From: Bacteroidota bacterium
GTDB lineage: Bacteria; Bacteroidota; Bacteroidia; B-17B0; Aurantibacillaceae
Direction of reading: 5' to 3'
NCBI GenBank assembly: GCA_017303905.1
Contig: JAFLBH010000004.1
Span: 186,001 to 250,000 of the forward strand
DNA: 64,000 nt
The position numbers were made by a program, and so were the translations under genes. A model generated the notes under the pieces. That model searched no databases. It saw only the letters and a program-made list of their open reading frames with translations, and was not told the origin of the DNA. Every line of letters starts with the position of its first letter. Position 1 is the first letter of the stretch. Below, piece after piece: positions 15,727 to 59,547 of the stretch.

Positions 15727-15790
15727 ATGAATTTGGTAGTAACAAACAATAAACCAAGGACAAAAACAATTTAAATAACAAACACAAAAT

Positions 15791-15828: not shown

Positions 15829-15848
15829 CATTAAACATCAAACATCCA

Positions 15849-16883: not shown

Positions 16884-19800
16884 ATGAAAAAATTATTGAT
16901 TACTCTTTTGCTTTTAACTGAACTTGCAACCTTCCCGCAATCTGTTGGCGATACAATTGTGGTGAAAGCTTTCAAATACGGAAGTGCAACGCGTGACACC
17001 GCGATTAATTTCCCGAACAACAGTCTCACTTACGAAAAAATCATCATGAAGTACAATATGCGTTGCAAAAACGGATTGGTGTCGACTTCTTCAAATCGTA
17101 ATTTGGGGTGTGGTGAGTGGGATTATTCTTGTAATACTTTCATTGCCGATTCTTCGCGTACCGAAAACGCGGCGCAAACACATCCGAGTCATATTATTTC
17201 TAATTTTTCGGGAAGCACTTATTACTACACTAACTTTCCTTTGTATGATTATTATTTATACAATCAGATTAATGTAACACTTAATAGTATCAGTTCAGAA
17301 ACTTCATTTGTTATTCCTACTGGAATGATTTCTATTCCTGAAGTTTTAAAAACAAATGAAAAATCAGGACGTACGCAAATTCTTTATACAGCCGCAGAAC
17401 TTTCCGGCATTGGTATGACAGCAGGTAATATAGATGCATTATTATTGAATGTAATTGGTTCAGGAGGTACTGCCAATTTCTTTAATATGAATATTAAACA
17501 CACTACAGCCAATTCATTAAGTGCCGCTACTCCAAACTTAAGCGGATTCACTAATGTATTTAATTCTAATTTCACTTTTATAGGTGGACCGAACAGAATA
17601 CAATTTCACACACCATTTGTGTGGAATGGTACAGATAATCTTTTAATCGACTTCTCTTTTACTAATGCATCCCCTTCTACTCCTATTGTGCTTTTAGGGA
17701 AAAATACTTCCTCTGTTGAAGCGATTTATGCTAACAACAATTACGCGCTCAACTTAAGCGCGCAAGGCCATGTGAACATGAATACAACTTCTTTAAGCTC
17801 TATCAATAATCAAATGACAGTTTCTTTTTGGGCTTATGGTAACAGCAGCATGATGCCAACCAATACTTCTATTCTTTACGCAACTAGTGCCAATCCAAAT
17901 GAGCGTCAGCTTAACATTCACTTACCTTGGAGCAACAGCAACATTTATTTTGATTGCGGTTACAGTGCCGGAGGTTATGATCGCATCAGCAAAATTTCTA
18001 CAGCGGCTAATAATGGCGGACAATGGAATCACTGGGCGTTTACAAAAAACACCGCTACAGGTTGGATGCGCATCTATTTAAACGGTGCTATTTGGGCAGT
18101 AGGAAATGGTAAATCAAAACCAATCTCTATCATGAATATGATTTTAGGGAAAGACAATACACTTAACAATAACTACAAAGGAAAAATTAATCAACTTTCT
18201 TTCTGGGATAAGGAATTACCGCAAACAGAAATTCAAGCTATTATGAATTCCAGCATCACCGCGACTCATCCATCCTACTCTAACTTAAAAGCCTATTACC
18301 CTATGATGGAAGGAAGCGGCTTAACGATTAATGATATTAAATCATTAGCCACCTCAACAGGCACCAATGTGAATTGGGCTTTTGATCGTGGTAATAAATT
18401 AAACCGCATGTTTAATGAATTGAATGTTAAACCTAACATTACATTCTTACGCGGTTCTTATTCGATTAGCACAACAACCGTTACTGTAAAAGATTCTATT
18501 GCCCGTGACCCTAACGTAGTGCAGTCCTACTCCATTACTTCTAATGCTTCAGTTACACCTATGAAGCATGACAGCGTTACTTTAGTATCAACAAATAATA
18601 ATATGTATAATGCTTCGCCATTAAACGTATACGATGGCGACAGTGGGACTTTAACCGGAACTATAGCGGTTACACCTACCGGAACTATCAACATTACGAA
18701 TTTAAATTATTTCACTCGTCATCCTTATTACATTGAGTTAATGTCGTTTGTTACACCTTACGGAATTGGTCTCGATTTTGGTATGCAGGGCAAAACCTGG
18801 TACTTCGACATGAGTGATTACGCACCATTATTAAAAGGAAGAAAACGCTTGTTAATGACTATGGGTGGTGAATGGCAAGAACAAATGGATATCGATTTTT
18901 ATTTTATTGTCGGAACTCCGCCTCGCACTGTTTTAGATTGTCATCAATTATGGCAAGGCGGTGCGCGTTTAGGCGGTGTTGGGATTGGCAGCATCACCAA
19001 CGATACACGTTTTGAAACACAAACGCTCACCATGAATAATTCGGCTTCTTCATTTAAAATGCGTTCTACAATTACAGGTCATGGTGCTGAGGGAGAATTT
19101 CATCAGAATGGCGGTTTGATTAATCATTACTTCAACATTAATGGTGGCGCCAATGAATTTAACTGGCAAATTACGCGTCCGTGTGCGGGTAATCCTGTTT
19201 ATCCTCAGGGAGGAACTTGGGTGTACGACCGACAAGGCTGGTGTCCGGGTGAATATTCATTATTAAAAGAGTATTACATTACTCCTTATGTAACGCCGGG
19301 CTCAACAGTTACTTTAGATTATAATACTTCTAATCCACCGGTGTCGGGGGGTGATTACCGTTATATTGCCGCGCATCAGTTAATAAGCTACAGCGGACCG
19401 AACCATAATTTAGATGCGGCCATGATTAATGTACGTAAACCCGGAAATTATGTAGAGTATTCAAGAGAGAATCCAATGTGCGCGAATCCGGTCATCATTG
19501 TAAGAAATACAGGCTCCGTAAATATATCCTCTTTAGATATTGAATATTGGATTAATAATACACCAACAAAAGAAACATTTACCTGGAATGGCAATTTAGC
19601 TTTCATGGACACTGCAAGCATTACATTACCGATTGGAGCTTTATGGCAAAACGCGCAAATGAACAGCGGTAAAAATTATTTTAATGTAGAATTAAAGAAA
19701 GCGAATAATGCCGCTGATAATTATTCTTACAACAATAAAATGGCCATTGATTTTAATTTACCGGATGTTATTACAGATACATTAACCGTTGAATTTAAAA

Positions 19801-44588: not shown

Positions 44589-44675
44589 CCGGAGAAGTGG
44601 CAGAGTGGTCGATTGCGGCAGTCTTGAAAACTGTTGAGGGTCATACCTCCGGGGGTTCGAATCCCTCCTTCTCCG
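44589..44675 (+). tRNA. tRNA-Ser (anticodon UGA)
   Basis: An 87-nt class II tRNA without encoded CCA. The acceptor stem GGAGAAG pairs with CTTCTCC, and the anticodon loop CTTGAAA (44621-44627) gives anticodon TGA. A long variable arm and a T arm GGTTCGAATCC follow. It reads UCA and, by wobble, other UCN serine codons. The serine-recombinase gene on the other strand terminates inside it, so this tRNA is the likely integration site of the island to its right. Confidence 0.97.
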
Positions 44676-46251
44676 CTGAAAGGGACTTAGGCTCAAAAAG
44701 AGAACTAAGTCCCTTTTTTATTATAGCAAAATCGCCCGTGTGTCGGGCGATTTGTGCAATTATAAAGTTGATTTCAGAGGTTCGAAATGCCCCGTTTTTC
44801 TTGTCATATACCAAACCGGACGGGAAGAGTAAATTTTGCAATCCCTCCTTTAATGCTATACCGCCATCTTGCCACAGTTGGCGCAGGTTTCGGCATAGAA
44901 TTACAGCTTCATTTATCATTTCTTTGAGGTTCGAAATGGAAATCCCACAAGTCGCCATTTCCTTTCGGATTTTATCAAATTCCTTAGTGTATTTTACCCT
45001 AAAACGGTCGTAGGTTTCCTTGGGCATCTCCTCTTTTATGAAGTGCTTCTCTTCAAGGGTTTCAATATCCTTGGTTAGTTCGACAATTCTCGCCTTAAGG
45101 ATCGCTTCCTTTTCAACGGAGTCTTTATTCAGTTCATGGTAGGTGCTTTCCAATTCAATTTTGATTGCTTCGCTCAGATCAGGCTTTACTTCATATTTCT
45201 CAAGTTCCTCTGAAAACAAACGATGCATTTCTTTTGCGCTTTTATTGCACTTACAGCCGTTTGTTCTGCATTTGTAGTAGTACAAGTTCTTCTTCTTTAC
45301 AATGTAGCCTGTAAATGGCTGATTACAATCCGAGCATTTAATGAAAACCTTAAGTGGAATATTTACATCTTCTGATTTGTGTGGTACTCCGAATTTAGTT
45401 GAAGATGAAATGACTTCATTCACTTTCATAAAGGTTTCCTTAGAGATCATTTTTTCATGCACTCCCTCAACTACTTTTCCATTCAACATTCCGTGTGATA
45501 CTAATCCGCAATAAAATGGGTTGATGAAAATCTTATGCAATTGCTGTTTGTACATTTTCACTCCGATAGCCTGAAGCTTCAAAATAATTTCTTCATTCTT
45601 CATACCCATTAGTTTCCATTCCCACGCTTTTTTAATTTTCTTACCATCCGCATTCACTACAATTTTTCTTTCTCCGTTTGTTCTCACAATATCATAACCC
45701 TGCGGTGGTTTCACAACCCAAATTCCTTTTTCAAATTTGGCTTTCATTCCTGCCATTGCCACTTGCTTTCGTTGTTCGTTATCCCAACGCCCGAATAACA
45801 ATTGCATATCATGAAACAGAACTCCGTTTGGATTAGATGTGTCGATTGGTTCTGTTACAGCTTTAATATGAACTCCATGCTTTTCTCTCAGTTCATCAGC
45901 AATGGAAATAGCTTTACCTCCTGTTCTGCTAAAGCGAGTCATTTTGTAAACCAAGATAGTGCTAATTTTCCCTTTGCTTGTATTTACAAAACTCAGCATT
46001 CGCTGAAACTCTTTCCTCGCATCCGTTTTAGCACTTTCATAAGTATCACCAAACGCTGAAACAATTGTTAGATTATTTCTCTTAGCATATTCCTCAATCG
46101 ATTTGCGTTGAGTTTCCAAAGACTCGTTTTTATCAAATTGCCCTTTGCCCGAAACCCTTGTGTACATAACTGCCAAATTGGATGTGGACTGCTTTACTTC
46201 CCTTTTACCAAAGCGCCCAAACCGGTTTGCTATTATTTGTTCTTCAGTCAT
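44641..46251 (-). CDS. large serine recombinase (integrase) of the island
   Basis: About 536 aa from ATG 46251, chosen because a strong Shine-Dalgarno (AAAGGAGG) lies 6 bp upstream; an upstream ATG at 46320 would bury it. The resolvase domain (AVMYTRVSGKGQF with catalytic Ser, then FSRTGGKAISIADEL) is followed by a recombinase domain (about 170-290), a zinc ribbon with CSDC...CRTNGCKCN (about 315-350) and a coiled coil (about 370-450). It inserts or excises DNA at att sites. The last residues (AEKEGFEPPEV) are the complement of the tRNA-Ser 3' half, so its native 3' end was probably replaced at integration. Confidence 0.92.
   Translation of the reverse strand: MTEEQIIANRFGRFGKREVKQSTSNLAVMYTRVSGKGQFDKNESLETQRKSIEEYAKRNNLTIVSAFGDTYESAKTDARKEFQRMLSFVNTSKGKISTILVYKMTRFSRTGGKAISIADELREKHGVHIKAVTEPIDTSNPNGVLFHDMQLLFGRWDNEQRKQVAMAGMKAKFEKGIWVVKPPQGYDIVRTNGERKIVVNADGKKIKKAWEWKLMGMKNEEIILKLQAIGVKMYKQQLHKIFINPFYCGLVSHGMLNGKVVEGVHEKMISKETFMKVNEVISSSTKFGVPHKSEDVNIPLKVFIKCSDCNQPFTGYIVKKKNLYYYKCRTNGCKCNKSAKEMHRLFSEELEKYEVKPDLSEAIKIELESTYHELNKDSVEKEAILKARIVELTKDIETLEEKHFIKEEMPKETYDRFRVKYTKEFDKIRKEMATCGISISNLKEMINEAVILCRNLRQLWQDGGIALKEGLQNLLFPSGLVYDKKNGAFRTSEINFIIAQIARHTGDFAIIKKGLSSLFEPKSLSAEKEGFEPPEV
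44679..44720 (+). terminator. terminator downstream of tRNA-Ser
   Basis: AAAGGGACTTAG pairs perfectly with CTAAGTCCCTTT and a T run follows. It starts three bases after the tRNA and also lies within the 3' end of the recombinase frame. Confidence 0.8.
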
Positions 46252-46282
46252 TTTTGCCTCCTTTCTTTTAGTATTAATTTTT

Positions 46283-46534
46283 TTATGCTTGTTTTCTGTA
46301 TTCAATTTCCGAAGCATCATTTTCTGTATTCAACAAAATTATTTTTGCTTCACTTGAATCATCGATCTCATGTTTCTTTTTAAATTTTGAAAGATGTTCG
46401 CATATAAGAACAGCCAGTTTTTTGATTGATAATACAATCTTGTTTGCTTGTTCATCGCTTACACTTTCATAACCTTTTATCATTCTTAGTTTTTCAACCG
46501 TTAATCCTTTGCTATTTTCGCTCACACTTTTCAT
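46283..46534 (-). CDS. small protein of unknown function upstream of the recombinase
   Basis: An 83-aa acidic and helical protein with no membrane segment. It reads like a helical bundle (LRMIKGYESVSDEQANKIVLSIKKLAVLICEHLSKF) and carries no recognised motif. Directly upstream of the recombinase (31 bp to its chosen start), it could be a recombination-directionality or regulatory factor, but nothing in the sequence proves this. Not recognised. Confidence 0.55.
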   Translation of the reverse strand: MKSVSENSKGLTVEKLRMIKGYESVSDEQANKIVLSIKKLAVLICEHLSKFKKKHEIDDSSEAKIILLNTENDASEIEYRKQA

Positions 46535-46700: not shown

Positions 46701-47414
46701 CTAGTTTTTGCATACCTCCGGAAACAATTTATTAAATGGCTCTCTCTTAGTACAATCCCTTATGAGATTCAAAATCAAAACATACCTGACTATTGCCGCT
46801 TTATTCAAGGTGAATTTTATGCCTTCTTTATCTCCTTCAAGGGCTCTTGCTAAAGGAAGAAATTGATCGAACAGTTTTATAAAATCATCAATGAATGGAA
46901 AATCATTCGGCAACATTTTAATTTGCTCCGATCTAAGCATTTCTTCTAAGGCCATACTAATAGCCTTAATGGTTTTATAATGAACTTTGCTTTTATAACT
47001 GATTTGGAATAAATTCTCTATTATACAACGAAGCCTTGGGACGAAATAAGAGAAGGCGGGAAAATTATTACTCGTAATCCGACCTCCATTATTTGCATTG
47101 TTAGAAAAATAATTTTTGCCAATGTTTAACGAAATATAACCATGCTGAATTTTGTCTAAAATATCAGGTGTGATGTATTGGTATTCTGCTTCCTCCTTTA
47201 TTACATGCTGTATATTTTTTTGTTCTTCAACTTTAATTGCGATTTCGTTATTTTCAAAACATTGACTTTTAATATCGCTATCGGAAACAAGCTCTAATTT
47301 ATTAGATGAACTAAAATTTCTATTTAGGTAAGCATATTGCTTACAGGTACTACTGCAATATTTCTTAGTACTTCGTTTTCCTTCTATAGGTTTATGGCAA
47401 TGTAAACAGTTCAT
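46701..47414 (-). CDS. zinc-ribbon protein of unknown function
   Basis: A 237-aa protein. The first 30 residues form a zinc-binding knuckle pair: CLHCHKPI (Cys3, Cys6) and KKYCSSTCKQYAY, a layout seen in several small bacterial zinc ribbons. The remainder is helical and basic, with one long amphipathic segment around FSYFVPRLRCIIENLF. No catalytic motif is visible. It follows the 86-aa gene by 11 bp and likely shares its operon. A nucleic-acid-binding role is a reasonable guess for the ribbon, nothing more. Confidence 0.65.
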   Translation of the reverse strand: MNCLHCHKPIEGKRSTKKYCSSTCKQYAYLNRNFSSSNKLELVSDSDIKSQCFENNEIAIKVEEQKNIQHVIKEEAEYQYITPDILDKIQHGYISLNIGKNYFSNNANNGGRITSNNFPAFSYFVPRLRCIIENLFQISYKSKVHYKTIKAISMALEEMLRSEQIKMLPNDFPFIDDFIKLFDQFLPLARALEGDKEGIKFTLNKAAIVRYVLILNLIRDCTKREPFNKLFPEVCKN

Positions 47415-47425
47415 TTTCTTTCATA

Positions 47426-47686
47426 TTAATTAAGTGAAATTTCATCTGGATTTTCTTCTCCATAACGTTGCTCGTTCCATTCGCTTACTGACTCATAAAT
47501 ATTATGCATGGCTGATTTTTGGATTTTGTTCTCTTTAGAATAAGTTAATTCCAAAACAACTTCACCCATTACCTCGTTTGTACCGATAATCTTGTTATTT
47601 AAATTCCCGATTCGTATCATTTTGCATACGTCTAAAAATATTTCAATCGGAATTTTTACGCTTTGTTTTTCTATTGGTGCCTTCAT
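47426..47686 (-). CDS. small protein of unknown function (86 aa)
   Basis: An 86-aa soluble protein with alternating strands and a charged C-terminus (RYGEENPDEISLN). There is no signal or membrane helix. It lies 20 bp after the 136-aa membrane-protein gene and 11 bp before the zinc-ribbon gene, so these three form one minus-strand operon. I do not recognise the family. Confidence 0.55.
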   Translation of the reverse strand: MKAPIEKQSVKIPIEIFLDVCKMIRIGNLNNKIIGTNEVMGEVVLELTYSKENKIQKSAMHNIYESVSEWNEQRYGEENPDEISLN

Positions 47687-47706
47687 TTCACTTGTCTTTT
47701 TAAATT

Positions 47707-48117
47707 TTAACCCTCAAGTTTAAAATGCTTTTTTTTATTTACGCTCTTATAAACTTTTGTCTTCTTGTCCTCTTCCATTGGTATCGTATTTTCATCTTCT
47801 GTATCATCTTCCTCATCACTAATTCCAATGGGTAATGAACGCATGGCTTTAGAAGCAATGAGTTTATTTGTAAGTTCCATTTGCCGGATGAGTTTAGAAA
47901 ATTGTTGATCTCGTTCACTCATCTGTCGTTTATGTTCTTCTTTTAAAGCATCCATATCCTTATTTGCTTTAAATGTTCCAATAAAAAATCCGGCTGCTAA
48001 TCCTGCTACTCCAGTTGTAACTGGATTTTTAATAAAGTCTTGGATTAATTCTATCCAATCCTTTGTTTCATCCTTTTTTTGCTCGTTTTGTTGTTTGTTT
48101 TCTCCGTTATTGCTCAT
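47707..48117 (-). CDS. single-pass membrane protein of unknown function
   Basis: A 136-aa protein. A charged N-terminus rich in Glu, Gln, Asn and Lys leads to one glycine-rich membrane helix (PVTTGVAGLAAGFFIGTF, about 33-50), then a coiled coil (about 53-80) and an acidic tail ending KKKHFKLEG. A strong Shine-Dalgarno (AAGGAGGG) lies upstream of the ATG, unusual here. First gene of the small operon, behind the GTCAATT repeat region. Function unknown; membrane tethering of a complex is possible. Confidence 0.6.
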   Translation of the reverse strand: MSNNGENKQQNEQKKDETKDWIELIQDFIKNPVTTGVAGLAAGFFIGTFKANKDMDALKEEHKRQMSERDQQFSKLIRQMELTNKLIASKAMRSLPIGISDEEDDTEDENTIPMEEDKKTKVYKSVNKKKHFKLEG

Positions 48118-48430: not shown

Positions 48431-48943
48431 CTAGGGAATTAAGGTCAGGTAATTAAAAATATTTGGTTCAAATGTTCTTATTAAATAATTTAATTTATTT
48501 GAAGGCAATGAGATACTTATACGATCAGGCAAAAGAAAATGGTGTTTTTCTTCTAAAGCACTAGAATAAATGGAAATCCCTTGTTTATTGTATTCAATTA
48601 ATGATTCATCTCTTCTGTAATCTGTATCGGGATAATTATAATCATCAGGAAGATTTGGGGTACATTGATAAAATATATTTTTTGTTGCCCCATTAAAATT
48701 CATTCTAGAAATATCGTTAAATTCATCTTTGCTAAATAGCAGATAAACTTTTTGATTTACCTCTCCATGTCTTTCTACTTCTGAACGAATAACGTGATCA
48801 AGCTCATCACCTTCATTATAATTATATTCGTCATAAAGCAATCGAAAATAAGGAAAGCGATTCCAAACACGTAGTTTTTCTGTTTTTATAATTGTAGAAA
48901 ATTCATAAATCCTCAATACAATTGGAAAAGGTTGTTTTATCAT
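48431..48943 (-). CDS. unknown protein at the end of the Wadjet-nuclease operon
   Basis: A 170-aa soluble protein without membrane segments or cysteine-rich motifs. It is aromatic-rich with an acidic middle (DELDHVIRSEVERHGEVNQ) and Tyr/Asp stretches near residues 98-110. I do not recognise it. It is the last gene of the long minus-strand operon, 11 bp behind xseB, and there is no similar gene elsewhere in the window. Position suggests an accessory role in the same system; the function cannot be read. Confidence 0.6.
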   Translation of the reverse strand: MIKQPFPIVLRIYEFSTIIKTEKLRVWNRFPYFRLLYDEYNYNEGDELDHVIRSEVERHGEVNQKVYLLFSKDEFNDISRMNFNGATKNIFYQCTPNLPDDYNYPDTDYRRDESLIEYNKQGISIYSSALEEKHHFLLPDRISISLPSNKLNYLIRTFEPNIFNYLTLIP

Positions 48944-48954
48944 CTTGTAATCAT

Positions 48955-49143
48955 TTATTTTTTAGAAAGTAATTTTTTTACTTCGCCATCGGTTTGCTTA
49001 AGTTTAGATTGACAAATTTCAATCAGCTCCTTTGCTCTCTCAAGTTTAGCATACAGATTGTCTATTGATACTTTTCCATCTTCAATATCTGAAACAATTT
49101 TTTGAAGTTCCTCTGAAGCCTTTTTATAAGTTAATGTTGCCAT
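48955..49143 (-). CDS. xseB: exodeoxyribonuclease VII small subunit
   Basis: A 62-aa helical-hairpin protein from ATG 49143 (the in-frame TTG 12 bases upstream is less likely). The XseB pattern is clear: SEELQKIVSDIEDGKVSIDNLYAKLERAKELIEICQSKL, with the typical E..L..I...L...... spacing. Several copies of XseB bind the C-terminal helices of XseA in exonuclease VII. It overlaps the end of xseA by 20 bases. Finding it in a defence-type island rather than a housekeeping locus is unusual. Confidence 0.85.
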   Translation of the reverse strand: MATLTYKKASEELQKIVSDIEDGKVSIDNLYAKLERAKELIEICQSKLKQTDGEVKKLLSKK

Positions 49144-50350
49144 TTCTTTTTTCAATTTTAGTTATGTTACTTTCAATAATGCTTGAACTAGTTATTGTTT
49201 TTATTTTGTTCCCGGATTTTAATTGTTTAGTGTCATTCAAAATGTTTCCTTCAAACGTGATTATCGCATATCCTCGAGCCAAAGTATTTTCCGGACTAAA
49301 ATTCTTAACATCTCGAATCAATTGGTTTAAGGTATCCTTTTCGTTTTGGATTAGAAGTTTAAATCCATGCTTAAGTTGCCCATCTAATTCGACTAATTCA
49401 TGTCTTTCAGAATCAATAACTTCCTTGCTTGCATTTGCAATTTGATGTCCTAATTCTACAATAGAATTTTCAAAATCTTTGTTGTGCTCAATAATGCTTT
49501 TCGCTGCCATAGCGGGAACCATAGTGAAAATATTTGCCACCATATCGACAATACTTTTATTTTGTTCGTGACCAATGCCAGTTATAATCGGTAATTTATA
49601 ATTGGCAACGGCTTTACTCAATTCATAATCATCAAAACAAATAAATCCAGTATCATCTCCACCACCACGAATAATGGCAACTGCATCATATTCTTCCCGT
49701 CGTTTATCTATTGCTTGAAGTTGATTCAACATTGATTTAGCCGCTTCATTTCCTTGCATGATAGCAGGAAAATCGGTTAAAGTAAATTTATACCCATATT
49801 TATTTTCAAGAAGAGCTGCTTTAAAATCGGAATAACCCTTTGTATTTACAGAAGAAATTAGTGCGATTCTTTGTATAACAGATGGACGATCTAATTTTTT
49901 ATTATTGGTTTCGTAAATGCCGGGCTCAATTAGTCTAATTACTTTTTCTTTTTCAAGCCTTATCAATGTTTTAAGTTTCTCATCCTGAATTTTACCGAGA
50001 GTATAATTATGATCGATAGAATTCATTATTAATGATAAACCATAAATCGGATGTAACTCAACTTTCACTTTTAATAAAACTTCAATTCCGTTTTCAAATT
50101 TAAGCCCAGTTTTTCTCTCAAATTCCGTTAGCTGATAAACACTTCCTCTAAAAATACATGTCTTTATTTCCGCAGTAATAACTCCATTCCTCCTTTCAAT
50201 TAATCGAGGATATAGATGTTTGTTGGGTTCGATTCCATTATAATTAGATATCTCACCAATAACATAAAAATATGTATTCAGATTAGCATCTAGAACCCCT
50301 TTCACCAATGAAATAAGTTCAGAGAGCCTATATTGTTTATTTTCTTCCAT
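49124..50350 (-). CDS. xseA: exodeoxyribonuclease VII large subunit
   Basis: A 408-aa XseA. The N-terminal OB-fold (about 5-120) includes YFYVIGEISNYNG. The catalytic domain has the TKGYSDFKAAL segment (Asp175), AIIRGGGDD (Arg228) and GIGHEQNKSIVDMVAN (His261). Aligned to E. coli XseA by spacing (R to H 33, H to the next site 3), the fourth conserved acid Asp241 is Asn264 here, and the rest of that motif (usually ETDFTIAD) is altered. The C-terminal helices that hold XseB are present but short. ExoVII degrades single-stranded DNA from either end. It starts 1 bp after the exonuclease gene. Confidence 0.88.
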   Translation of the reverse strand: MEENKQYRLSELISLVKGVLDANLNTYFYVIGEISNYNGIEPNKHLYPRLIERRNGVITAEIKTCIFRGSVYQLTEFERKTGLKFENGIEVLLKVKVELHPIYGLSLIMNSIDHNYTLGKIQDEKLKTLIRLEKEKVIRLIEPGIYETNNKKLDRPSVIQRIALISSVNTKGYSDFKAALLENKYGYKFTLTDFPAIMQGNEAAKSMLNQLQAIDKRREEYDAVAIIRGGGDDTGFICFDDYELSKAVANYKLPIITGIGHEQNKSIVDMVANIFTMVPAMAAKSIIEHNKDFENSIVELGHQIANASKEVIDSERHELVELDGQLKHGFKLLIQNEKDTLNQLIRDVKNFSPENTLARGYAIITFEGNILNDTKQLKSGNKIKTITSSSIIESNITKIEKRNGNINL

Positions 50351-50351
50351 A

Positions 50352-51443
50352 TTAAAAACTAACTTCTTTTAAATGTAGGTATTCAAATAATTTAAATGTT
50401 GTAATAATATCTTGTTTATTATGGTCTATGATTGGAATAACAGTACCAATATTGCCAGTTGACATGTATGCACTATAAAAAGACGGAACAAGAAATCCAG
50501 GAACATCTCCTCTTCTATGATGTCCCAATATTTCGCTTTCTAATGTTTTTAATTTGTAATCATAACAAACACCATCAAAAGCCCGTTTGCAAAAATAATA
50601 CATGTCAAAATGGGCATGATCTATTAGAAGGTCTATTCCTAAAGAATTTGCCCTTGACTTAATTAGAGGCACATCAAAAGAAGCTCCATTATAAGTAAGC
50701 AAAACGTTTTTACCTTTCAGATAATCTTTAAGGTGAAAGAAGATTGCACCTTCCTCATCTAAATCTCTAGCTAATAGTTGATCTACATTAAATTTCCCAT
50801 CTCTCATGTAACCAATTCCAATAAGAAATGCCGGGCTATTGAAACCTAATGTTTCCAAATCAATCACAATAAAATCTTCAGGATTAAAAAAACTTGAAAC
50901 TGAAAATCCGGTAGTATTGTATTTGGGGTAATCATTTCTTCGCCTTACCCATTTATGAATTGAATGCCCATCATGGTTATCTATAATTGATAAAAGCTCC
51001 TTTGCTTTAAATTGAAATTTATGATGACTCAATAAATCTTCGATCTTTTTATAACCGAAAGTTTTTAATTCTTTTTCCTTTAACTTTGCTATTCCATCAA
51101 TTAGGGTAAGCTCAGCGTACAATAAATTTTTAGCTGATTCTTTATTTACAACAGGAAAATCAATTTGTTCAGTATTTGTAATTAAATAAAATGATCCTTC
51201 TTTATTCTTGACCTCTTGGCCGAATAAATATTTTTCAAGTTTTATTCCTTTAAAATGCTTTTGGTATTTTCTTTCATCATAGCCGAATTTAGAATAGTCA
51301 ATACTTTTTAAGGTTGAAGGCGCAGGAGATTTCTTTTTAGTAATCTTCTTTACAGTAACTGTCTTTGGCTTTGCCTGACGAGGATTTTTGGCGGTTTTGC
51401 TACCAACTTTAATTACTTTTTTACCTTTGACTAACTTTCCCAT
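50352..51443 (-). CDS. YprB/RNase H-like DEDD exonuclease
   Basis: A 363-aa protein. The first 45 residues are a basic, disordered tail (Lys-rich; KVIKVGSKTAKNPRQAKPK). About 105-155 resembles a helix-hairpin-helix segment. A YprB-type RNase H-fold domain covers about 188-360. The four DEDD acids are visible: Asp195 and Glu197 in VIDLETLGF, Asp257 in YNGASFDVP and Asp345 in HNKQD. Such proteins are predicted single-strand nucleases. It starts 3 bp after jetD and ends 1 bp before xseA, so it belongs to the same operon. A DNA-trimming role after JetD cutting is an inference. Confidence 0.85.
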   Translation of the reverse strand: MGKLVKGKKVIKVGSKTAKNPRQAKPKTVTVKKITKKKSPAPSTLKSIDYSKFGYDERKYQKHFKGIKLEKYLFGQEVKNKEGSFYLITNTEQIDFPVVNKESAKNLLYAELTLIDGIAKLKEKELKTFGYKKIEDLLSHHKFQFKAKELLSIIDNHDGHSIHKWVRRRNDYPKYNTTGFSVSSFFNPEDFIVIDLETLGFNSPAFLIGIGYMRDGKFNVDQLLARDLDEEGAIFFHLKDYLKGKNVLLTYNGASFDVPLIKSRANSLGIDLLIDHAHFDMYYFCKRAFDGVCYDYKLKTLESEILGHHRRGDVPGFLVPSFYSAYMSTGNIGTVIPIIDHNKQDIITTFKLFEYLHLKEVSF

Positions 51444-51446
51444 TGC

Positions 51447-52301
51447 TTAGTTATTAATAAATATTTCCTGTTCTAATCCCTTTTTATATTTGTCAATAAG
51501 TGCAATTAACTTTATAATTTCTTTTTCTGTAATTTGTTTTTTATCAGGCCTTCTTTCTAGTTGCCTATTATATAACTCTCTATTTCCATTAGTTTTTAAT
51601 AAACTTTCGATATAATCTGGAATAAAAAATGAGGCTTTTTCATTCAAGTGCTTTTTATATTCATTAAGATAAATATTAATCCCCTCAAAGTCGAAATCTC
51701 CGAAGTGCATATATTTATTGGGAATCCGTCCTAACCACTTTACTAAGTCCTTATTTTGCGGATATCGAGACACAAACAGTGGAGAAATATTTTTGAATAA
51801 GGATTTCTGCTTTTGTATTTCTTTAAAATTTTCCGGGTTTTCAATTCCGACAATTGTTATGTTGGCCGGAACTTTTAAATGCTCATAATCATATATAAAA
51901 GTGTATGTTCCTTCTAAAGGATTAATTATAAATGACTTATCAGAAAGAAGCGCATCAATTGGTTGATAGCAATTAACTAGAAATCCTTTAAATGTCCTAA
52001 CCTGCTTTAACTTGGAATCCGAACTTATTAAAACTGATTCATTTCTTGTTCCTGTATCATTTTTTTGATACTCAATATAATTTTCTAAACTGGAAATTCC
52101 AAAGTGATTCGCAATGTATGCAGTTAAACTTTCCGGCTTATTTACATAATACATTCGTTGACTTTTACCAATATTTCTAACTTGTATTACACCATCCTCT
52201 ATTAATCCGGCTATTACAGCATGTTTGAGTTTACTTGATGGTATTTCTACCTTATCAAGCATCTGTTTTAATTTTTTCGCTATGTTCAATGGTAAAGTCA
52301 T
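51447..52301 (-). CDS. jetD: Wadjet JetD-like Toprim nuclease
   Basis: A 284-aa protein. The N-terminal part has winged-helix-type helices (KLKQMLDKVEIPSSKLKHAVI). A Toprim domain follows: Glu154 in VGIENPENF, Asp202 and Asp204 in GDFDFEG, and a C-terminal LEQE. JetD is the endonuclease subunit of Wadjet, which cuts plasmids after the JetABC motor has measured the circle. It is shorter than the roughly 400 residues I would expect, chiefly at the N-terminus. It overlaps jetC by four bases (ATGA). Confidence 0.88.
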   Translation of the reverse strand: MTLPLNIAKKLKQMLDKVEIPSSKLKHAVIAGLIEDGVIQVRNIGKSQRMYYVNKPESLTAYIANHFGISSLENYIEYQKNDTGTRNESVLISSDSKLKQVRTFKGFLVNCYQPIDALLSDKSFIINPLEGTYTFIYDYEHLKVPANITIVGIENPENFKEIQKQKSLFKNISPLFVSRYPQNKDLVKWLGRIPNKYMHFGDFDFEGINIYLNEYKKHLNEKASFFIPDYIESLLKTNGNRELYNRQLERRPDKKQITEKEIIKLIALIDKYKKGLEQEIFINN

Positions 52302-55300
52302 GCTAAAGCGTGATTTGTAATAATTCTTTTTATTTTAGAAAAGCTTTTTTCATCCTTTTCAAGTTTATAAATGTGTTTGTAATCAATTGCATTATTTTCC
52401 GTTGGAGAACCATTGACCAAAAGAATATTACGATCATTAGCAAATTTTAATATCCCTTTGATATTGTTAGGATGAAGCTTGCCTATTTCATCCATAACAC
52501 AGTGTAATCTGAAATCTTTAAACCTCTTGGATGCCCCATCTTTAAAAACATTCAAGAGCATAATATTTATCATGGCTTTAACAAGAATGTCTGTGCCATC
52601 ACTTCCTACATTTGCGAGCTTCTCAACCCATCCGGTATCGTTTTGGTTTTCCTGAATCCTGAACTTTAATTCAAAGGAATCTGAAAGCGAGATAGTTTTC
52701 TTTCCAAAAGTTGTAATTTGCTTAATTAGTTCTTTAAGCAGATCAACCGCCTTTTTGTTTTTTGCACCTTGGTCATTACCGGAAAATAAGTTTGGAGTGC
52801 CTAATTCATTTATATTTTCATCATTGAACTTTTTTATAGCGAGCAATATACTCACAACAGGGTTGCTACTATTATCCCATTGTAATTCTATTTTTTTGAT
52901 CGCCCCAACAAAATTTCTTTGTTCAAAATCCTTATTAATACTATGAATTATCTTTTGAATTTCTCCTCCTTTGGACATTAAACTTCCAGTTTCCTTGCCT
53001 ATGGACGTAATTATAGAAGCAAAGCGTTCATTTATTCTTTTTTCAAATTGTTCTATTTTTCTTTCTTCAATGAAATCATTTAGTTCATCCGCAAACTGAA
53101 CATATTCTATTGAATCAATCAAAATAATTTTAAAATTAAAAATATTCTTTTCCGAAAAATTACCTAAAAACTTATTTATTGATTCTTTCATTTCACCCAG
53201 CCGATCTTTTCGGGAATAATCTTTTTGTTCCAATTCTCGAATTAGTTCCCGACCGGGTTTATTAACGGCATTTTCCTCCTTTGGGTCTGAAAGATAAATG
53301 TTAAGGTCAGAATAGCTTTCAGAATTCCTGCTCTTAAATAAATCCAGCTCATTTAAATCTGCCCCATAATCTTCCAGAATTTTTTTTAATTCTGAAATTA
53401 CTCGTGTAAGTTCGGTGAGTTCAGTAAATAATGATCCCTTTTGTTGCGTATGTTTTTGCTGTTCATTAATAAGCTGCTCTTGTAAACTCTTCTTTTTAAT
53501 TTTGAACTCTTCCTCTTTATCAAATAATTCTCTCTTGTCTTTTTTGTATTCTACAACCTTGTCCCAATTATTTTCTATATACTCAAGTTTCGCTTTTAAC
53601 TTTTCTAATTGTTTATCAATTTCTGCGATCCTAGAGGTATTTGCACCTTTATCGGAAAGCTCCTTTTTTTGCTTCTCCTTTATTTCTAGTTCTCGTTGTG
53701 AATACTCGGCTTTTTTTGTTTTAAAAGTTGTATCGATTTCAGCCTTGGCTTCAATAGTCTTTCTTTCTTCTTCACGTATCAGGTTGTCTTTCTCCGCTTG
53801 TTTTGCCTTCTCCTCAAGAGAAATTTGCTCTTCCAATGCTTTTAGCTTCCTTCCTGCTACTATTATTTCTTCTGACAGTTGATCTATTTGTTTTTGTATT
53901 TCCTTCAATAAACTATGTTTCTCATTGGCAGCTTTTTGAGTTAGATCGTTTAGTGTGTTAGTCGCCTCTTCAGTTTTGGCGGTGTTGGTTTCAATTGTAT
54001 AATTATACTCATTAATTAAATCCTTGCTTGCTTTTATCTTAGGCTGATACTTCGTTTTTAATTTTATTATTTCAGATTCCAATGTTTCGTTGGCTGCAAG
54101 TATTTGTTTTTTTTGTAATTCTATTTGCCCATTTAGCTCCTCCTTATCTTTTTCGTAATCGGCAACTGTTTTTACTTTTTTGGTTATTTCTCTTAAATCT
54201 ATCTTTACTCCAAAAAAGTTTAATTCTTTCGAGTTTATTATTTCCGGGGAAAGTTCATTATGGAATAGTATATCATCTGTGCATACTTTTCCTATCGTGT
54301 TTTCCCAATTTGGATACTTTTCATTTAGCCAGCCATAAAATGAATCCTTGCTTTCATGATTTTTGTTTCAATCGACTTCACTTCGTTCTGTATATTTAAT
54401 ACAGAATTGTTCAATTTTTCCAATTTTAGATTATGGCTTTCTTTTTTTCCGTTTTCTTCAGTCTCCCATTGCGTTTGAAATGTTTTTATTTGTTCATTGT
54501 TGAATTTAGCTTGGCTTTCGGCATTTATCTTATCATTTTTAAATTTTTGAAGAGTTGTTTTTAATTGCTCTATTTCATTTTCATAAAACCGCTTATGATT
54601 AATTTCGGCCTTTTTTATTAGAAGTTCTTGAGATTGATCCTTCTTCTCGTTAACATGATTTCTAGCGGTGTCCAACGCCAACAAACTATTGTTCCGGATT
54701 TCTTTAATGATATCAACATATTGATTAGTTGTGTTTTCCTTAAAGGAAAGAAAATTGGATTGTAGTGTCAATTTCTGCTTTTCACAATCTGTTTCTATAC
54801 TTTTTAACTGATTTTGAAGCTCAGTTAACAACATCGAATATTTTTGAGTTATTTCTGCGTACTTAGAAGTCAATATTCCTTTTTCCTTATTAAGATTTCC
54901 TTGTTCAACCAATAAGGTGTCCTTTTTAGTAACGGCTTCAATTATAGCTTCGATGTTTATTTTTTTATATTCCTGCGCTTTTGTTTCTGCTTCCTTTATT
55001 TTATTATCAAACACACTGATATCATTCTGTATATTTTCTTTTTTGGACTCAAATTTACCATCAAGTTCAGTTAACTTGGCTTTTATTTGTACTTCCTTTA
55101 ATTCCAGGGTTTCTAATTTTTTCTTAATTTTAGGGGTGTTCTTTTCAATCGAATTTAAAGCCCAAGCCAATTGCTTGGCCAGTGTTATTTTCTCTCTTTC
55201 TAAAAATTTAATGGCAGATCTTAACTGAATAATTTTTTCAGATTGAGTTTTTACCGGTATTTCTCCGTTTTTGTTTTTCTCTGTCCATTTTCTTATATCT

Positions 55301-55980
55301 GAAAGTTGACTTTCAAATCCGGTAAGATGATGCTGATAATCCTCTAAACTTATAACAATATCTTCATCTTCTAAAGATCGGATAATCGTTTGCTTTATAA
55401 ATTCCGCCTTGAGTTCAGAGTTTAAAAGTACATTTTGAATTGTACGAGGAATATTTTGATATTGCTTGCTTTCCATTAATGCAAACTTTTTAAGTTCGCT
55501 TTTTCCTTCACTATTACCATATAATATATCCCGGTATTCTTCATAACGGTCAATCTTTCGCGAATAATATATTTTGCTTTGATTAAGCTGATTGCTTATC
55601 TGCTCCCATGATTCAAAAGCATAGTTATCTTTTATAAAATAGTCCTTGTTGTACTCACCTTCAAAAAATCTAAAGCAAACCTTACCCTGAGATTTGTAAC
55701 AGAGAATAGAATAAACTCCAGTTTCCTTAACTATTTCATATATGATATAAGAATTTTGATAGGGAAAATAGTATTCAGAAAAATTTTTTTGGCCGGGCTT
55801 TATTCCTAGCTTTTGGCTATCGGCATTATAAAAAAACAGGATGGCTCTTAAAATAGTACTCTTACCTACACCTTGTGTTCCTATTAAATGCACGTTACCG
55901 CCTGTAAATATTTCTGAATATTTAATTGTGGCGCTATTTATCAATATTATTTTATTGAGGTATCTCATTTTGTAATTCAT
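52298..55980 (-). pseudogene. jetC: Wadjet JetC-like SMC ATPase, interrupted by a one-base frameshift
   Basis: Two frames make one SMC-type protein of about 1227 residues. The first (54325-55980) has Walker A GTQGVGKST at 34-42 and a long coiled coil. The second (from about 54370 to 52298) continues with the hinge-side FYGWLNEKYPNWENTIGKV, more coiled coil, a signature-like GSDGTDILVKAMIN and Walker B CVMDEIGK. The break is a one-base loss in an A run (about 54357-54370, minus strand CAAAAAT); adding one A restores the frame. It could be a real inactivation, phase variation or an assembly error. JetC is the loop-extruding motor. Start could also be ATG 55968. Confidence 0.85.
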
Positions 55981-56521
55981 TTGGGATGTTAATACTATTA
56001 ACTAATCTTTCCATATATCCGAAAGAAGCAACAACTTTATATTGATTAGTAATTTCATTTTCAAGCTCGACAAATCCTTCTTTTACAAGTAAACCAACAA
56101 GGTTTTTTATTCGTTCTAAATAACTTCCTTCACCAGTGTATTTTCTTAATCCTTCTAACTTATCCTTGAGGTTTACATCTCTACCAATTTGCCCTGCCAT
56201 ATGGCTATAATCAAAACGAAAGTTGGAGCCGAAAGAATTGTCATACGCTTTCAAAAAGTCTAAAATATCAATCCATTTATATGCAATCTCAATTTTTCTA
56301 TCAAGTTCAGCTTTGATTTCAGATTTTGAGAAAAAGAAATACTCATCACCTCTCTCTAGGATAAAATTTATTGCATGAAAATAATCGCACAGTTTATCAA
56401 AATTATTTTCATCATTTATAATATCATATAACTTCCGCAAGTTATGGTCAGCACTATTGGAGGAAATAAACTGTCCTTTGCTAAGTATTTCAAAAATTTC
56501 ACCTGTTTGAGGAATATTCAT
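55952..56521 (-). CDS. jetB: Wadjet JetB-like (MukE-like) subunit
   Basis: A 189-aa helical protein of the MukE/KITE class. It reads LRKLYDIINDENNFDKLCDYFHAINFILERGDEYFFFSKSE, the pattern of the winged-helix JetB subunit that joins JetA to JetC. It lies 2 bp after jetA and overlaps jetC by 29 bases, consistent with translational coupling. Assigned by position and fold more than by sequence identity. Confidence 0.82.
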   Translation of the reverse strand: MNIPQTGEIFEILSKGQFISSNSADHNLRKLYDIINDENNFDKLCDYFHAINFILERGDEYFFFSKSEIKAELDRKIEIAYKWIDILDFLKAYDNSFGSNFRFDYSHMAGQIGRDVNLKDKLEGLRKYTGEGSYLERIKNLVGLLVKEGFVELENEITNQYKVVASFGYMERLVNSINIPNELQNEIPQ

Positions 56522-56523
56522 AG

Positions 56524-57714
56524 TTAATTATTTTTTGGATAAACCATTACGAACTCTATTTCATTTTTCTTATTGTATGTATCAGCAATGTTAAACTCGT
56601 TTTCGTATTGTGAGATCATCTGACAGAAAAAAGTTAACCGCTCCTCAAATGAAACATCCTTAGGGAAACGATAACTCTGAACAAAGTCATATAGATTATT
56701 ACCTGAAGCCATGAAGCCATTTTTCACTTCTTCCAAATTGATAAAAATTTCTTCTTCGGTTTCGGTTTCCAAATAAGAATCCTCTATTGCTTCTGCTAAT
56801 GCTATATTTTTGTGACCATTTGTAAACTTTTTACTTATTTTTAATATACTTTGATAGGCTTCATCTGTTTGCAAATAATCTATCGATAATTTCAGCGGAT
56901 ATGAAGATTTTGGTTCAAAAATAACAGAGTTATTGTTAGACAATACTTCCAAGAAATTGGTCTTAGACTTCAGTTCAAATTGATCTCTTAAATATTTTAT
57001 TTGTCTTATTTTCTCAATAAACTCGCTTTGATGTTTTATTTGATTTAAATAATTTATTATTTGTTTTTGGGTCTCAATTAAATTGTGTCTCCCTTCATTC
57101 AATTTTATTCTCAAGGAATTAGTAATCCGTTTTAGCTCTTCGTCCAACGCTGCTTTAAAGAAAGTAAGTTCTTCTTCCGTAACTAATTTCTCAGTTTGAT
57201 GAATGAGAAATTCTATGTCCTTTCTTTTGATATCAAAATTCTCAAGCTTTGCAATTTTTACTTTATAGGTGGGTTCTGTTTTAAATGTGTTTTCAATATT
57301 TCTATTTAGGTCAATAATACTTCTATGAGTTATCCTTCCAATTTTTTGTAATGAGGATTTAATCACTTTTAAATAAGAATACTGCTTATCCGAGCCACTC
57401 TCCTTTAGATAATAATTGATGCTTTCTTTTACATGTTGGATGTTTTCATGAATAAAGGCCGTGCTTACCTGCTCGTTCACTTCCAAAACCAACTCAAAAA
57501 ATTGGAGGTATTTTTCATCTATCTCAAGGAAAGCACCATTCCTCCGGAGAACTTCTTTTTCGATTAGTTTTTCAATTCTATCTTCCTCCAAAATTTCCAA
57601 TGCCATTTCATATTTATATGAAAAGGAATTCCGTTTCTCAAACATCTCGGATAGAAGGTCTTTCGACCAATCCAAGCTTTTGATAAGTTCTTTTATGGAG
57701 TTAAAGGTTAACAT
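56524..57714 (-). CDS. jetA: Wadjet JetA-like (MukF-like kleisin) subunit
   Basis: A 396-aa protein with an N-terminal helical/winged-helix region (about 1-100), a long helical middle (about 130-240; coiled-coil-like) and a C-terminal domain ending VMVYPKNN. It matches the kleisin-type JetA, which bridges the SMC heads. First gene of the long operon; its -7 box TAATTTTG and an operator lie directly upstream (57731-57765). JetA proteins are divergent, so the call depends mainly on the jetB-jetC-jetD neighbours. Confidence 0.8.
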   Translation of the reverse strand: MLTFNSIKELIKSLDWSKDLLSEMFEKRNSFSYKYEMALEILEEDRIEKLIEKEVLRRNGAFLEIDEKYLQFFELVLEVNEQVSTAFIHENIQHVKESINYYLKESGSDKQYSYLKVIKSSLQKIGRITHRSIIDLNRNIENTFKTEPTYKVKIAKLENFDIKRKDIEFLIHQTEKLVTEEELTFFKAALDEELKRITNSLRIKLNEGRHNLIETQKQIINYLNQIKHQSEFIEKIRQIKYLRDQFELKSKTNFLEVLSNNNSVIFEPKSSYPLKLSIDYLQTDEAYQSILKISKKFTNGHKNIALAEAIEDSYLETETEEEIFINLEEVKNGFMASGNNLYDFVQSYRFPKDVSFEERLTFFCQMISQYENEFNIADTYNKKNEIEFVMVYPKNN

Positions 57715-57765: not shown

Positions 57766-58665
57766 TTAGAATCGTTTATTCTTTATTTTACTGTTTAAGT
57801 AGTCTTTTAAGCTTTTGGGGCTTACTATCTCTACTTGATCTATCATGCCTAATACAAACCGCCCTACACCGTTAAAATCACAGACCCATCCATCAAATGT
57901 GTACTTATTATCCTTGCTTTTCATCAAAAACTTTTCAGATAGAGGGTATTCTTCTAGTAAAAGATTATAAGCCATAAGGCTTAATATGAGTTTTACCGGA
58001 ATAGTTTTCTCCCCACCAATCCTAAATACATCAATTTCATTACGTTTATGAAGCTTCTCATTCTTCCATTTTTTATCAGTTATTTTTACCTCTTTAATCC
58101 GAGCAACTTTAAAAGTTTTAGATGATTTAGCCTCGATATCGTAGCACCACACATAGTTATAATTTGACGTGAAGGCAAATGGCTCTAATAGTCGATCTCG
58201 GATGTTATCGCTATTAGATGATCTATATCCATGAAAAATTACCTGCTCCTTGTTTTTAATTGCTCCTTTTAAACTTATAACGTTCTCGGAACTCTCCTTT
58301 CTCACAATTTTATTTACCGCCTTGTCAGAATCGAAAAGGACATACAGTTTTTCATACAAATCATTCTTGAATTTACTTTCATCGTCAATTAAATGAATTG
58401 CTTTGCTTAGGACGTGTGCTTCTTCTTCCGAAAAATGAATTAGCTTACTTAGGTCTTTATAGTCCTGAGACTTTTTGTCTATTTTAAAATACCCATTGTG
58501 ATTATCTAATAGAAATCCGGCATTTTTAAAAGTTGTCAAATACCTGTATATGGTTCTTTCGGATGATTCAAAATCTTCAGCAAGTTGTTTAACACTATAT
58601 CCATAACTGCCGGATAACTTCATAAGTATTTCCAACATTCTTTGAAATTTTGCCTGATCGTTCAT
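57766..58665 (-). CDS. HTH-WYL domain transcriptional regulator
   Basis: A 299-aa regulator. An N-terminal helix-turn-helix of the DeoR/HTH_11 type (about 8-60; SVKQLAEDFESSERTIYRYL) is followed by a WYL-type ligand-binding domain (about 120-210; VIFHGYRS, LLEPFAFTSNYNYVWCYDIEAKSSKTFKVARI) and a WCX-like C-terminal part. Such proteins (BrxR/CapW kind) commonly repress defence operons. It lies 52 bp upstream of jetA and is divergent from the RteC-like gene. The operators at 57749, 58696 and 48145-48245 are its probable targets; its own gene lies between two of them. Confidence 0.88.
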   Translation of the reverse strand: MNDQAKFQRMLEILMKLSGSYGYSVKQLAEDFESSERTIYRYLTTFKNAGFLLDNHNGYFKIDKKSQDYKDLSKLIHFSEEEAHVLSKAIHLIDDESKFKNDLYEKLYVLFDSDKAVNKIVRKESSENVISLKGAIKNKEQVIFHGYRSSNSDNIRDRLLEPFAFTSNYNYVWCYDIEAKSSKTFKVARIKEVKITDKKWKNEKLHKRNEIDVFRIGGEKTIPVKLILSLMAYNLLLEEYPLSEKFLMKSKDNKYTFDGWVCDFNGVGRFVLGMIDQVEIVSPKSLKDYLNSKIKNKRF

Positions 58666-58695
58666 CTGCCTGTATTTAAAGTAAATATAAAACTT

Positions 58696-58730
58696 TTGAC
58701 GGAAATTGACAATGACCTTTTGTTATTTTG
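58696..58730 (+). promoter_or_regulatory. operator-promoter of the RteC-like gene
   Basis: TTGACGGAAATTGACAA (58696-58712) is identical to the jetA operator, and a TTATTTTG -7-like box (58723-58730) lies at the same 17-base distance from the inner TTG. It sits in the 87-bp divergent gap, so it could also control the WYL gene on the other strand. Confidence 0.7.
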
Positions 58731-58752
58731 TCCCAAACCTAAAGAATTGAAA

Positions 58753-59547
58753 ATGAAACAAACTTTTGAACATTTACTTAAACGCTACATCAGAATAGTT
58801 GAGTGCAACATTGAGAAACGCTATAATAGGGCAAAGGATAAAGAATTTGTAAGGGATGAAATCGAAAGAGAATTTGCCTTATTAAATATAATTCAAGTTG
58901 TTGGTGAGTATAAAGAGAAAATGGTTGAAACATTTAATACTTATTATAGGAGAGGTGAAGCCATCGAAGAGATCTTACCTCTACTTCAAAAAATCTATGG
59001 AGAAGACGTGAAGGATGAATTGGATATAAAAAAAATCGAGAATGGTGTAGCATTACCAATTTATATTAGCGATGAAGAAAAGCAATTAAGGGAGTTTGTT
59101 TTGGATTCAAAAAAGCTGAAACACTTTTTTATACGTTATTTGGCTAGTAACGAAGTTGCACAAAATTTAAGTACAATCTTCATTAAAAATAATATTCTTC
59201 CTACAATAACAACTGAAATTGAAACTACTATAGCTTCCGAAACATCATTAAAGAACTCAACTATAATTAAATGGACAGGAAGTAGGGACAACAAAAATGA
59301 ATTTGTTCAGCTAGTTTACGGACTACACACTTCCGGATATATCAATAATGGAAAGGGAGAGATAACGAAAATAGTTGAATTATTAGCAAATATTTTTGAT
59401 CTTGAGTTAAGTAAAAACTGGCAGAGCAATCACTCATCAAGCATTCATAAGTCAAAAAATGATTATGAGCCAAAAATTTTTACTAATCTTCAAGATGCTT
59501 ATAAAACTTATTCTACAGCATTGATAGAAGGAAAAAGAAAGAGGTAA
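58753..59547 (+). CDS. RteC-like protein
   Basis: A 264-aa protein from ATG 58753, chosen because the upstream ATG at 58642 lies inside the regulator and would override the operator. The N-terminal part is helical and charged. The C-terminal region (IKWTGSRDNKNEFVQLVYGLHTSGYINNGKGEITKIVELLANIFDLELS) matches the RteC domain, known from the Bacteroides conjugative transposon CTnDOT as an activator of excision genes. It is expressed divergently from the WYL gene. Its role here, regulation of the island or of host genes, is inferred. Confidence 0.72.
   Translation: MKQTFEHLLKRYIRIVECNIEKRYNRAKDKEFVRDEIEREFALLNIIQVVGEYKEKMVETFNTYYRRGEAIEEILPLLQKIYGEDVKDELDIKKIENGVALPIYISDEEKQLREFVLDSKKLKHFFIRYLASNEVAQNLSTIFIKNNILPTITTEIETTIASETSLKNSTIIKWTGSRDNKNEFVQLVYGLHTSGYINNGKGEITKIVELLANIFDLELSKNWQSNHSSSIHKSKNDYEPKIFTNLQDAYKTYSTALIEGKRKR

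What the first reader, a model, noticed from the sequence alone, without database searches (positions are those of the whole stretch)
48431..57714. Wadjet-type operon extended by a DEDD exonuclease and exonuclease VII
jetA-jetB-jetC-jetD is followed without a break by a YprB/RNase H-like exonuclease, xseA, xseB and a 170-aa unknown; spacing is 1-11 bp or overlapping throughout. Wadjet is known as a motor plus the JetD cutter. Here the cutter is followed by nucleases that act on single-stranded DNA, so the linearised plasmid might be degraded rather than merely cut. I do not know a described Wadjet type with this set. The unknown 170-aa protein could be the missing link or an immunity-like factor.
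Basis: partly seen in the sequence, partly recalled or inferred. Interest (0 to 1): 0.88.

Follow-up and report, generated by a model that had tools for sequence, protein, structure and literature searches.

The report
Mobile plasmid-cutting system with built-in DNA shredders
A mobile island in a Bacteroidota genome carries a divergent Wadjet plasmid-cutting machine whose operon also encodes two exonucleases (a MrfB-like enzyme and exonuclease VII), the same three nuclease genes sit next to a different Wadjet in a relative, and this suggests that some Wadjets bring their own enzymes to destroy the plasmid after cutting it.

Summary
The gene order is real: jetA-jetB-jetC-jetD, a MrfB/YprB-type DEDDh exonuclease, xseA, xseB and a 170-aa ORF lie on one strand, 1-11 bp apart or overlapping. 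Corrections: jetC is split by a single-nucleotide frameshift here (intact, 1227 aa, in two relatives), and the 170-aa gene is not part of the unit. DNA identity (about 94-95%) with two other genomes ends exactly at the xseB stop, so the conserved unit is WYL regulator-jetABCD-mrfB-xseA-xseB, on a serine-recombinase island at tRNA-Ser. All its genes show purifying selection. The Exo VII is not housekeeping: about 75 of 87 genomes of the family lack it. An independent arrangement (mrfB'-xseA'-xseB' upstream of a canonical type I Wadjet) occurs in another genus. The association is rare: 0 of 37 other Bacteroidota Wadjet loci have it, and a 52-63% identical relative (G084) has jetABCD alone. Best reading: the nucleases act after JetD. 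The MrfB-like enzyme resects double-stranded ends 3'-5' and Exo VII removes the remaining single strands. Functional coupling is inferred, not shown. The main rival is separate cargo in the same mobile element. No paper in the searched library links Wadjet and Exo VII. New variant of a known kind.

The parts
57766..58665 (-). WYL-domain regulator, first gene of the conserved unit (51 bp upstream of jetA)
   Evidence: PF13280; 98% identical in G034 and palsa MAG; also precedes type I Wadjets in G026, G035 and G015 at 82-94%
56524..57714 (-). jetA (kleisin-like subunit, 396 aa), divergent
   Evidence: No Pfam/PADLOC hit; 63% to G084 and 26-29% to the resident condensin's first gene; position
55952..56521 (-). 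jetB (KITE/MksE-like, 189 aa)
   Evidence: PF21980 E 4e-36
54325..55980 (-). jetC, N-terminal part (SMC, Walker A GTQGVGKST); frame broken at its end
   Evidence: PF12128 E 2e-28; single-nucleotide deletion relative to two intact relatives
52298..54340 (-). jetC, C-terminal part in shifted frame (Walker B VMDEIGK)
   Evidence: 97% over 680 aa to intact JetC of G034; PF12128
51447..52301 (-). jetD (Toprim nuclease, 284 aa, shorter and divergent)
   Evidence: PF23947 E 6e-8; weak PADLOC JetD; E154-N and D202-x-D204 align with ENE and GDID of canonical JetD
50352..51443 (-). MrfB/YprB-type DEDDh exonuclease (363 aa) with Lys-rich N-terminus
   Evidence: PF13482 E 1e-31; solved MrfB 8un9 E 4e-14, residues D195 E197 D257 H341 D345 aligned with the DEDDh set
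49124..50350 (-). xseA, Exo VII large subunit, short form (408 aa)
   Evidence: TIGR00237 228.6 bits, cut-off 180; 8txr E 2e-19; only xseA in the genome
48955..49143 (-). xseB, Exo VII small subunit (62 aa from ATG, or 66 aa from TTG at 49155)
   Evidence: TIGR01280 51.2 bits, cut-off 35
48431..48943 (-). 170-aa ORF of unknown function; in the same transcription direction but NOT part of the conserved unit
   Evidence: No family; homology with both relatives ends at 48954
58642..59547 (+). RteC-like gene, divergent from the WYL gene; part of the mobile-element backbone
   Evidence: PF09357 E 2e-11; 73% in G034, palsa, G026, G035
46701..48117 (-). element backbone genes (237 aa with HNH-like start, 86 aa, 136 aa)
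   Evidence: 88-95% in G034/palsa, 52-69% in G026/G035 elements; PHROG HNH
44641..46320 (-). large serine recombinase of the element
   Evidence: PF00239, PF07508; 93-97% in palsa, G026, G035
44591..44676 (+). tRNA-Ser (tga); island edge
   Evidence: ARAGORN; 94% identity with same-genus G052 ends exactly at 44676

Best explanation
This is a mobile, WYL-regulated Wadjet variant with its own end-destruction module. Inferred sequence of events: JetABC (SMC motor) extrudes a small circular plasmid and JetD (Toprim) makes the double-strand cut; the MrfB-like DEDDh exonuclease then degrades the 3' strands from the new duplex ends (or from nicks), leaving 5' single strands; Exo VII (XseA/XseB), which digests single strands from either end without needing a metal, removes those. 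The cut plasmid is erased instead of being re-ligated or repaired. Shown here: the operon, its conservation and selection, the catalytic residues, the accessory nature of Exo VII, and a second independent pairing with a type I Wadjet. Inferred: activity, order of action and coupling to JetD. In this particular genome jetC carries a frameshift, so the motor is probably inactive or the base call is wrong.
For: Order and spacing with overlapping or near-overlapping genes. Same unit in G034 and palsa MAG PLYN01000009.1 with homology ending exactly at the xseB stop. dN/dS for jetA-jetB-jetD-mrfB-xseA-xseB 0.00-0.23. xseA found over cut-off in only 12 of 87 genomes of the family and only once in this genome. 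MrfB-like protein found only in G000 and G034 of 87, and its diverged form only in G041 and G048. In G048 the order WYL'-382aa-mrfB'-xseA'-xseB'-jetA-B-C-D (90 bp from xseB' to jetA), strong PADLOC type I. Three of four module carriers also have a Wadjet against 9 of 87 genomes overall, hypergeometric p about 0.003 by hand, relatedness not corrected. Full DEDDh set aligned with MrfB, and MrfB acts on linear/nicked dsDNA and ssDNA 3'-5' (PMC11194089).
Against: Association is rare: none of 37 other Bacteroidota Wadjet loci carries the trio, and G084's 52-63% identical jetABCD lacks it, so the nucleases are dispensable for Wadjet as such. All carriers are one family of mobile elements that also pick up other cargo. 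xseAB also stands behind other effectors (hsdR on a Chryseobacterium plasmid), so it is not Wadjet-specific. Canonical Wadjet blocks plasmids without added exonucleases (PMC10586767). jetC is broken in the window. No expression or activity data.
Confidence: 0.5

Rival explanations
1. Separate cargo: mrfB-xseA-xseB is an independent DNA-degrading defence or repair cassette that travels in the same family of mobile elements and happens to sit next to Wadjet in the cargo slot, sharing a promoter but no mechanism.
For: The element slot exchanges cargo: G026 and G035 carry type I Wadjet in the same RteC-WYL slot without nucleases, G034 and palsa add different genes after xseB. In G048/G041 the module has its own WYL' and 382/386-aa gene. 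xseAB also occurs behind type I R-M and a HisKin-conflict/helicase operon.
Against: In the window, G034 and palsa the trio is fused into the jet operon with 1-3 bp gaps; in two different arrangements (downstream, upstream) it abuts Wadjet each time; within the family's genomes searched it was never seen away from a Wadjet or Wadjet-type WYL gene.
Confidence: 0.27
2. Single-strand interception: the exonucleases attack plasmids at single-stranded stages (conjugal entry, rolling-circle replication), complementing JetABCD, which sees only double-stranded circles.
For: Exo VII digests ssDNA (established knowledge); MrfB is active on ssDNA (PMC11194089); Wadjet does not act on linear DNA (PMC10586767).
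Against: Free ssDNA exonucleases need an end and would also attack host intermediates; nothing in the locus targets them to incoming ssDNA; MrfB also works on duplex ends.
Confidence: 0.1
3. Self-protection: the exonucleases clean up chromosome breaks or protein-DNA adducts left by JetD or topoisomerases, limiting Wadjet autoimmunity.
For: Exo VII mutants are sensitive to agents that trap topoisomerases (from general knowledge); JetD is a topoisomerase VI-like Toprim enzyme (PMC10586767, PMC13040014); MrfB is a repair enzyme in B. subtilis.
Against: JetD lacks the covalent tyrosine (PMC10586767), so no adduct is expected; exonucleases at a chromosome break would more likely do harm.
Confidence: 0.08
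4. Chance neighbour: xseAB is the host's housekeeping Exo VII that happens to follow Wadjet.
For: It is the only xseA in this genome.
Against: Most genomes of the family have no xseA at all, the locus is a horizontally moved island shared by three genomes, and the bona fide housekeeping XseA of Bacteroidales lies in other neighbourhoods.
Confidence: 0.02

Closest known systems
Wadjet / JetABCD (MksBEFG, EptABCD), types I-III
   Same: jetA-jetB-jetC-jetD order; SMC, MksE-type KITE subunit, Toprim JetD with the E and DxD motif
   Different: No strong PADLOC match for any Jet subunit; JetD short (284 aa) and DUF7281-like instead of DUF3322+JetD_C; followed by MrfB-like exonuclease and Exo VII
Resident MksBEF-like condensin of this bacterial family
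   Same: Same-size SMC (1227-1228 aa, about 30% identity), MksE and first subunit in the same order; sister clade in the SMC tree
   Different: No jetD and no nucleases; fixed chromosomal gene in 62 of 62 near-complete genomes
MrfAB (YprAB) of Bacillus subtilis
   Same: The exonuclease is of the MrfB family with the complete DEDDh set
   Different: No MrfA helicase in the operon, no C-terminal TPR region, Lys-rich N-terminus, next to Wadjet
Exonuclease VII (XseA/XseB)
   Same: Both subunits above curated cut-offs, adjacent genes
   Different: Short XseA (384-408 aa against about 480-495 in relatives), accessory and mobile; Asn in place of the usual Asp after the GxGH motif

Membership tests
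Wadjet (JetABCD) | Four-gene jetA-B-C-D order | tested here: met
Wadjet (JetABCD) | SMC subunit JetC with Walker A and B, intact | tested here: inconclusive
   Motifs present and intact ORFs in G034/palsa; frameshifted in the window
Wadjet (JetABCD) | KITE subunit JetB | tested here: met
   PF21980 E 4e-36
Wadjet (JetABCD) | Kleisin JetA | tested here: inconclusive
   No family hit; structure model too poor (pLDDT 38.7); position and homologues only
Wadjet (JetABCD) | JetD with Toprim nuclease motif | tested here: met
   DUF7281 hit, weak PADLOC JetD, E and DxD aligned with canonical JetD; model uninformative
Wadjet type I, II or III | Recognised by the type-specific models (PADLOC) | tested here: not met
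   Best hits E 1e-4 to 1e-6 over short stretches, against 1e-60 to 0 for the G048 type I system
Wadjet (JetABCD) | Restricts circular plasmids | not testable with these tools
   Needs experiment
Exonuclease VII | XseA and XseB above curated cut-off | tested here: met
   TIGR00237, TIGR01280
Exonuclease VII | Catalytic Asp, Arg, His, Asp set (E. coli D155, R205, H238, D241, from memory) | tested here: inconclusive
   First three positions conserved by alignment to 8txr; the last is Asn in window, G034, G041 and G048
MrfB exonuclease | DEDDh residues | tested here: met
   D195, E197, D257, H341, D345
MrfAB repair pair | Partner helicase MrfA adjacent | tested here: not met
   No helicase gene in the operon

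The most novel reading that the evidence does not exclude
A further Wadjet type in which the SMC-Toprim cutter is coupled to a dedicated exonuclease relay (MrfB-like enzyme on duplex ends, then Exo VII on single strands), so that plasmid clearance is cut-and-erase; the relay is a plug-in that mobile elements have attached to two different Wadjet types on either side of the operon, and Exo VII is attached in the same way to other DNA-cutting defence effectors.
Probability: 0.33. Interest if true: 0.78.

Novelty: new variant of a known kind. Interest (0 to 1): 0.6.

Why it matters
What happens to a plasmid after Wadjet cuts it has been left to host nucleases. A Wadjet that encodes its own end-processing enzymes makes that question directly testable, shows that Exo VII, usually thought of as a repair enzyme, can be an accessory defence part, and gives a divergent jetABCD clade (sister to a chromosomal MksBEF-like condensin) not covered by current defence-finder models.

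Tried and rejected
Housekeeping Exo VII by chance: rejected by its absence from most of the family. The 170-aa protein as component: rejected by relatives. Trio as a general feature of Wadjet: 0 of 37 other loci. More carriers in a 395-genome draw of the phylum: none with the MrfB query or a four-row profile; in plasmids only one half-length hit with the window MrfB, and 38 partial hits, mostly haloarchaeal, with the G048 form (neighbourhoods not checked); none in viral contigs. AlphaFold models of JetD and JetA from three near-identical sequences had pLDDT about 38 and were not used. Profile-profile comparison with canonical Jet proteins was weak for JetA, JetB and JetD. The XseA tree does not decide whether the two Wadjet-linked XseA groups share one origin (support 59/10). 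A repeat of the tRNA-Ser end at the far island edge was not found, so the exact right boundary is unsettled. In G041 the contig ends inside the Wadjet-type WYL gene and no accessory JetC/JetD was found elsewhere in that assembly, so it counts as inconclusive.
Full report
Observation. The genes are present as described, on the minus strand of window 48431-57714, with spacings of 1-11 bp or overlaps. JetB matches MksE (PF21980), JetC matches DUF3584, JetD matches DUF7281, the next protein matches RNase_H_2, and XseA and XseB exceed the curated cut-offs. PADLOC models see only traces of JetC and JetD, so no standard finder would call this a Wadjet. JetA has no hit and is named by position.

Two corrections. 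First, jetC is not intact here: the frame breaks near 54,360 and continues in another frame to 52298. The copies in genome G034 (L005) and in the palsa MAG PLYN01000009.1 (L052) are single 1227-aa ORFs, and the alignment shows one single-nucleotide gap, not in a long homopolymer. This copy is therefore probably inactive, or the base call is wrong. Second, the 170-aa ORF is not part of the unit: DNA similarity to both relatives (about 94-95%) runs from about 59,500 to 48,954, the base after the xseB stop, and then unrelated genes follow in each genome.

Conserved unit and selection. The unit is WYL regulator, jetA, jetB, jetC, jetD, mrfB-like, xseA, xseB. Pairwise dN/dS among the three genomes is 0.02-0.09 for wyl, jetA and jetB, 0.08-0.21 for jetD, 0.16-0.23 for the exonuclease, 0.07-0.13 for xseA and 0.00-0.06 for xseB; jetC, comparable only between the two intact copies, gives 0.07. 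The nuclease genes are maintained like the jet genes.

Exo VII is accessory. The genome has one xseA, this one. Of 87 genomes of the family, 13 have any match and 12 one over the cut-off, one of these being weak fragments in G014. Bacteroidales XseA hits found by the genome scan lie in neighbourhoods without jet genes.

Mobile element. The unit lies in an island with tRNA-Ser at one side and a large serine recombinase; identity with the same-genus genome G052 stops exactly at the tRNA end. The same backbone (RteC-like gene and WYL gene, three small genes, recombinase 97% identical) in G026 and G035 holds a canonical type I Wadjet without nucleases. In G034 and palsa other cargo follows xseB. 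The element thus has a Wadjet slot whose content can change.

Second arrangement. In G048 (other genus) a type I Wadjet with strong PADLOC scores is preceded by WYL', a 382-aa protein, a MrfB-like exonuclease (26% identical to the window's), a short XseA and XseB, with 90 bp between xseB' and jetA. In G041 the same five genes precede a WYL gene 94% identical to the window's, where the contig ends. A four-gene jetABCD 52-63% identical to the window's, in G084, has no nucleases. Of 37 further Bacteroidota Wadjet loci none has MrfB, XseA or XseB nearby; some of these loci are cut by contig ends. So the association is real and arose in at least two arrangements, but it is rare and optional.

Relation to the resident condensin. 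A 1228-aa homologue of this JetC (about 30% identical), in an operon with homologues of jetA and jetB but without jetD, is present in all 62 near-complete genomes of the family, including this one. In the SMC tree the accessory and resident proteins are two well-supported sister groups. ScpA was not found in the own genome; the Bacteroides control was negative too, so this is weak evidence about the condensin repertoire.

Mechanism. The exonuclease is of the MrfB family (8un9, E 4e-14) with all five DEDDh residues. MrfB degrades linear and nicked double-stranded DNA, and single strands, 3' to 5' (PMC11194089). Exo VII digests single strands from both ends (established knowledge). JetD cleavage yields a linear duplex (PMC10586767). 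The three activities can be chained without a helicase: cut, 3'-strand removal, removal of the remaining 5' strand. The JetD motif residues (E154; D202, D204) align with those of canonical JetD. Every step after gene content is inference. The most serious rival is that the trio is separate cargo of the element. It is supported by the element's cargo exchange and by Exo VII genes behind other effectors (hsdR on NZ_CP041688.1; a HisKin-conflict operon in G080), although the latter also fits a general role of Exo VII behind DNA-cutting defence.

Novelty. Searches of the held papers for Wadjet or JetABCD with Exo VII, xseA or exonuclease found no such system; subscription papers are mostly missing from that library. 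I rate it a new variant of a known kind.

Noticed in passing
own genome G000:C2:121780-125418 (L045) and 83 of 87 family genomes: A resident three-gene MksBEF-like condensin without jetD is fixed in the whole family; the mobile jetABC of the window is its sister group. ScpA was not found in the own genome.
   Followed up: partly
NZ_CP041688.1 45585-47205 (L152): xseA-xseB follows hsdR of a type I restriction system by 32 bp on a Chryseobacterium plasmid: Exo VII attached to another DNA-cutting defence.
   Followed up: no
L014 (G080) 9386-16095: xseA-xseB behind a UvrD/Pif1-like helicase, a response regulator and a HisKin-conflict kinase, possibly another defence operon with Exo VII.
   Followed up: no
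L044 (G437) 9753-15246: A 37-43% identical jetABC without jetD lies next to thiamine biosynthesis genes in another family of the class.
   Followed up: no
family f19, genus g69: Canonical JetD_C is found in some 40 sampled genomes of one distant family, often several copies per genome, far above the rest of the phylum.
   Followed up: no
L005 (G034) 12419-19681 and L052 11445-17982: Cargo after xseB differs: 402-, 526-, 884- (PLD/Tyr-DNA phosphodiesterase-like) and 577-aa genes in G034; 388-, 367- and 531-aa genes of unknown family and an interrupted copy of the 577-aa gene in palsa.
   Followed up: partly
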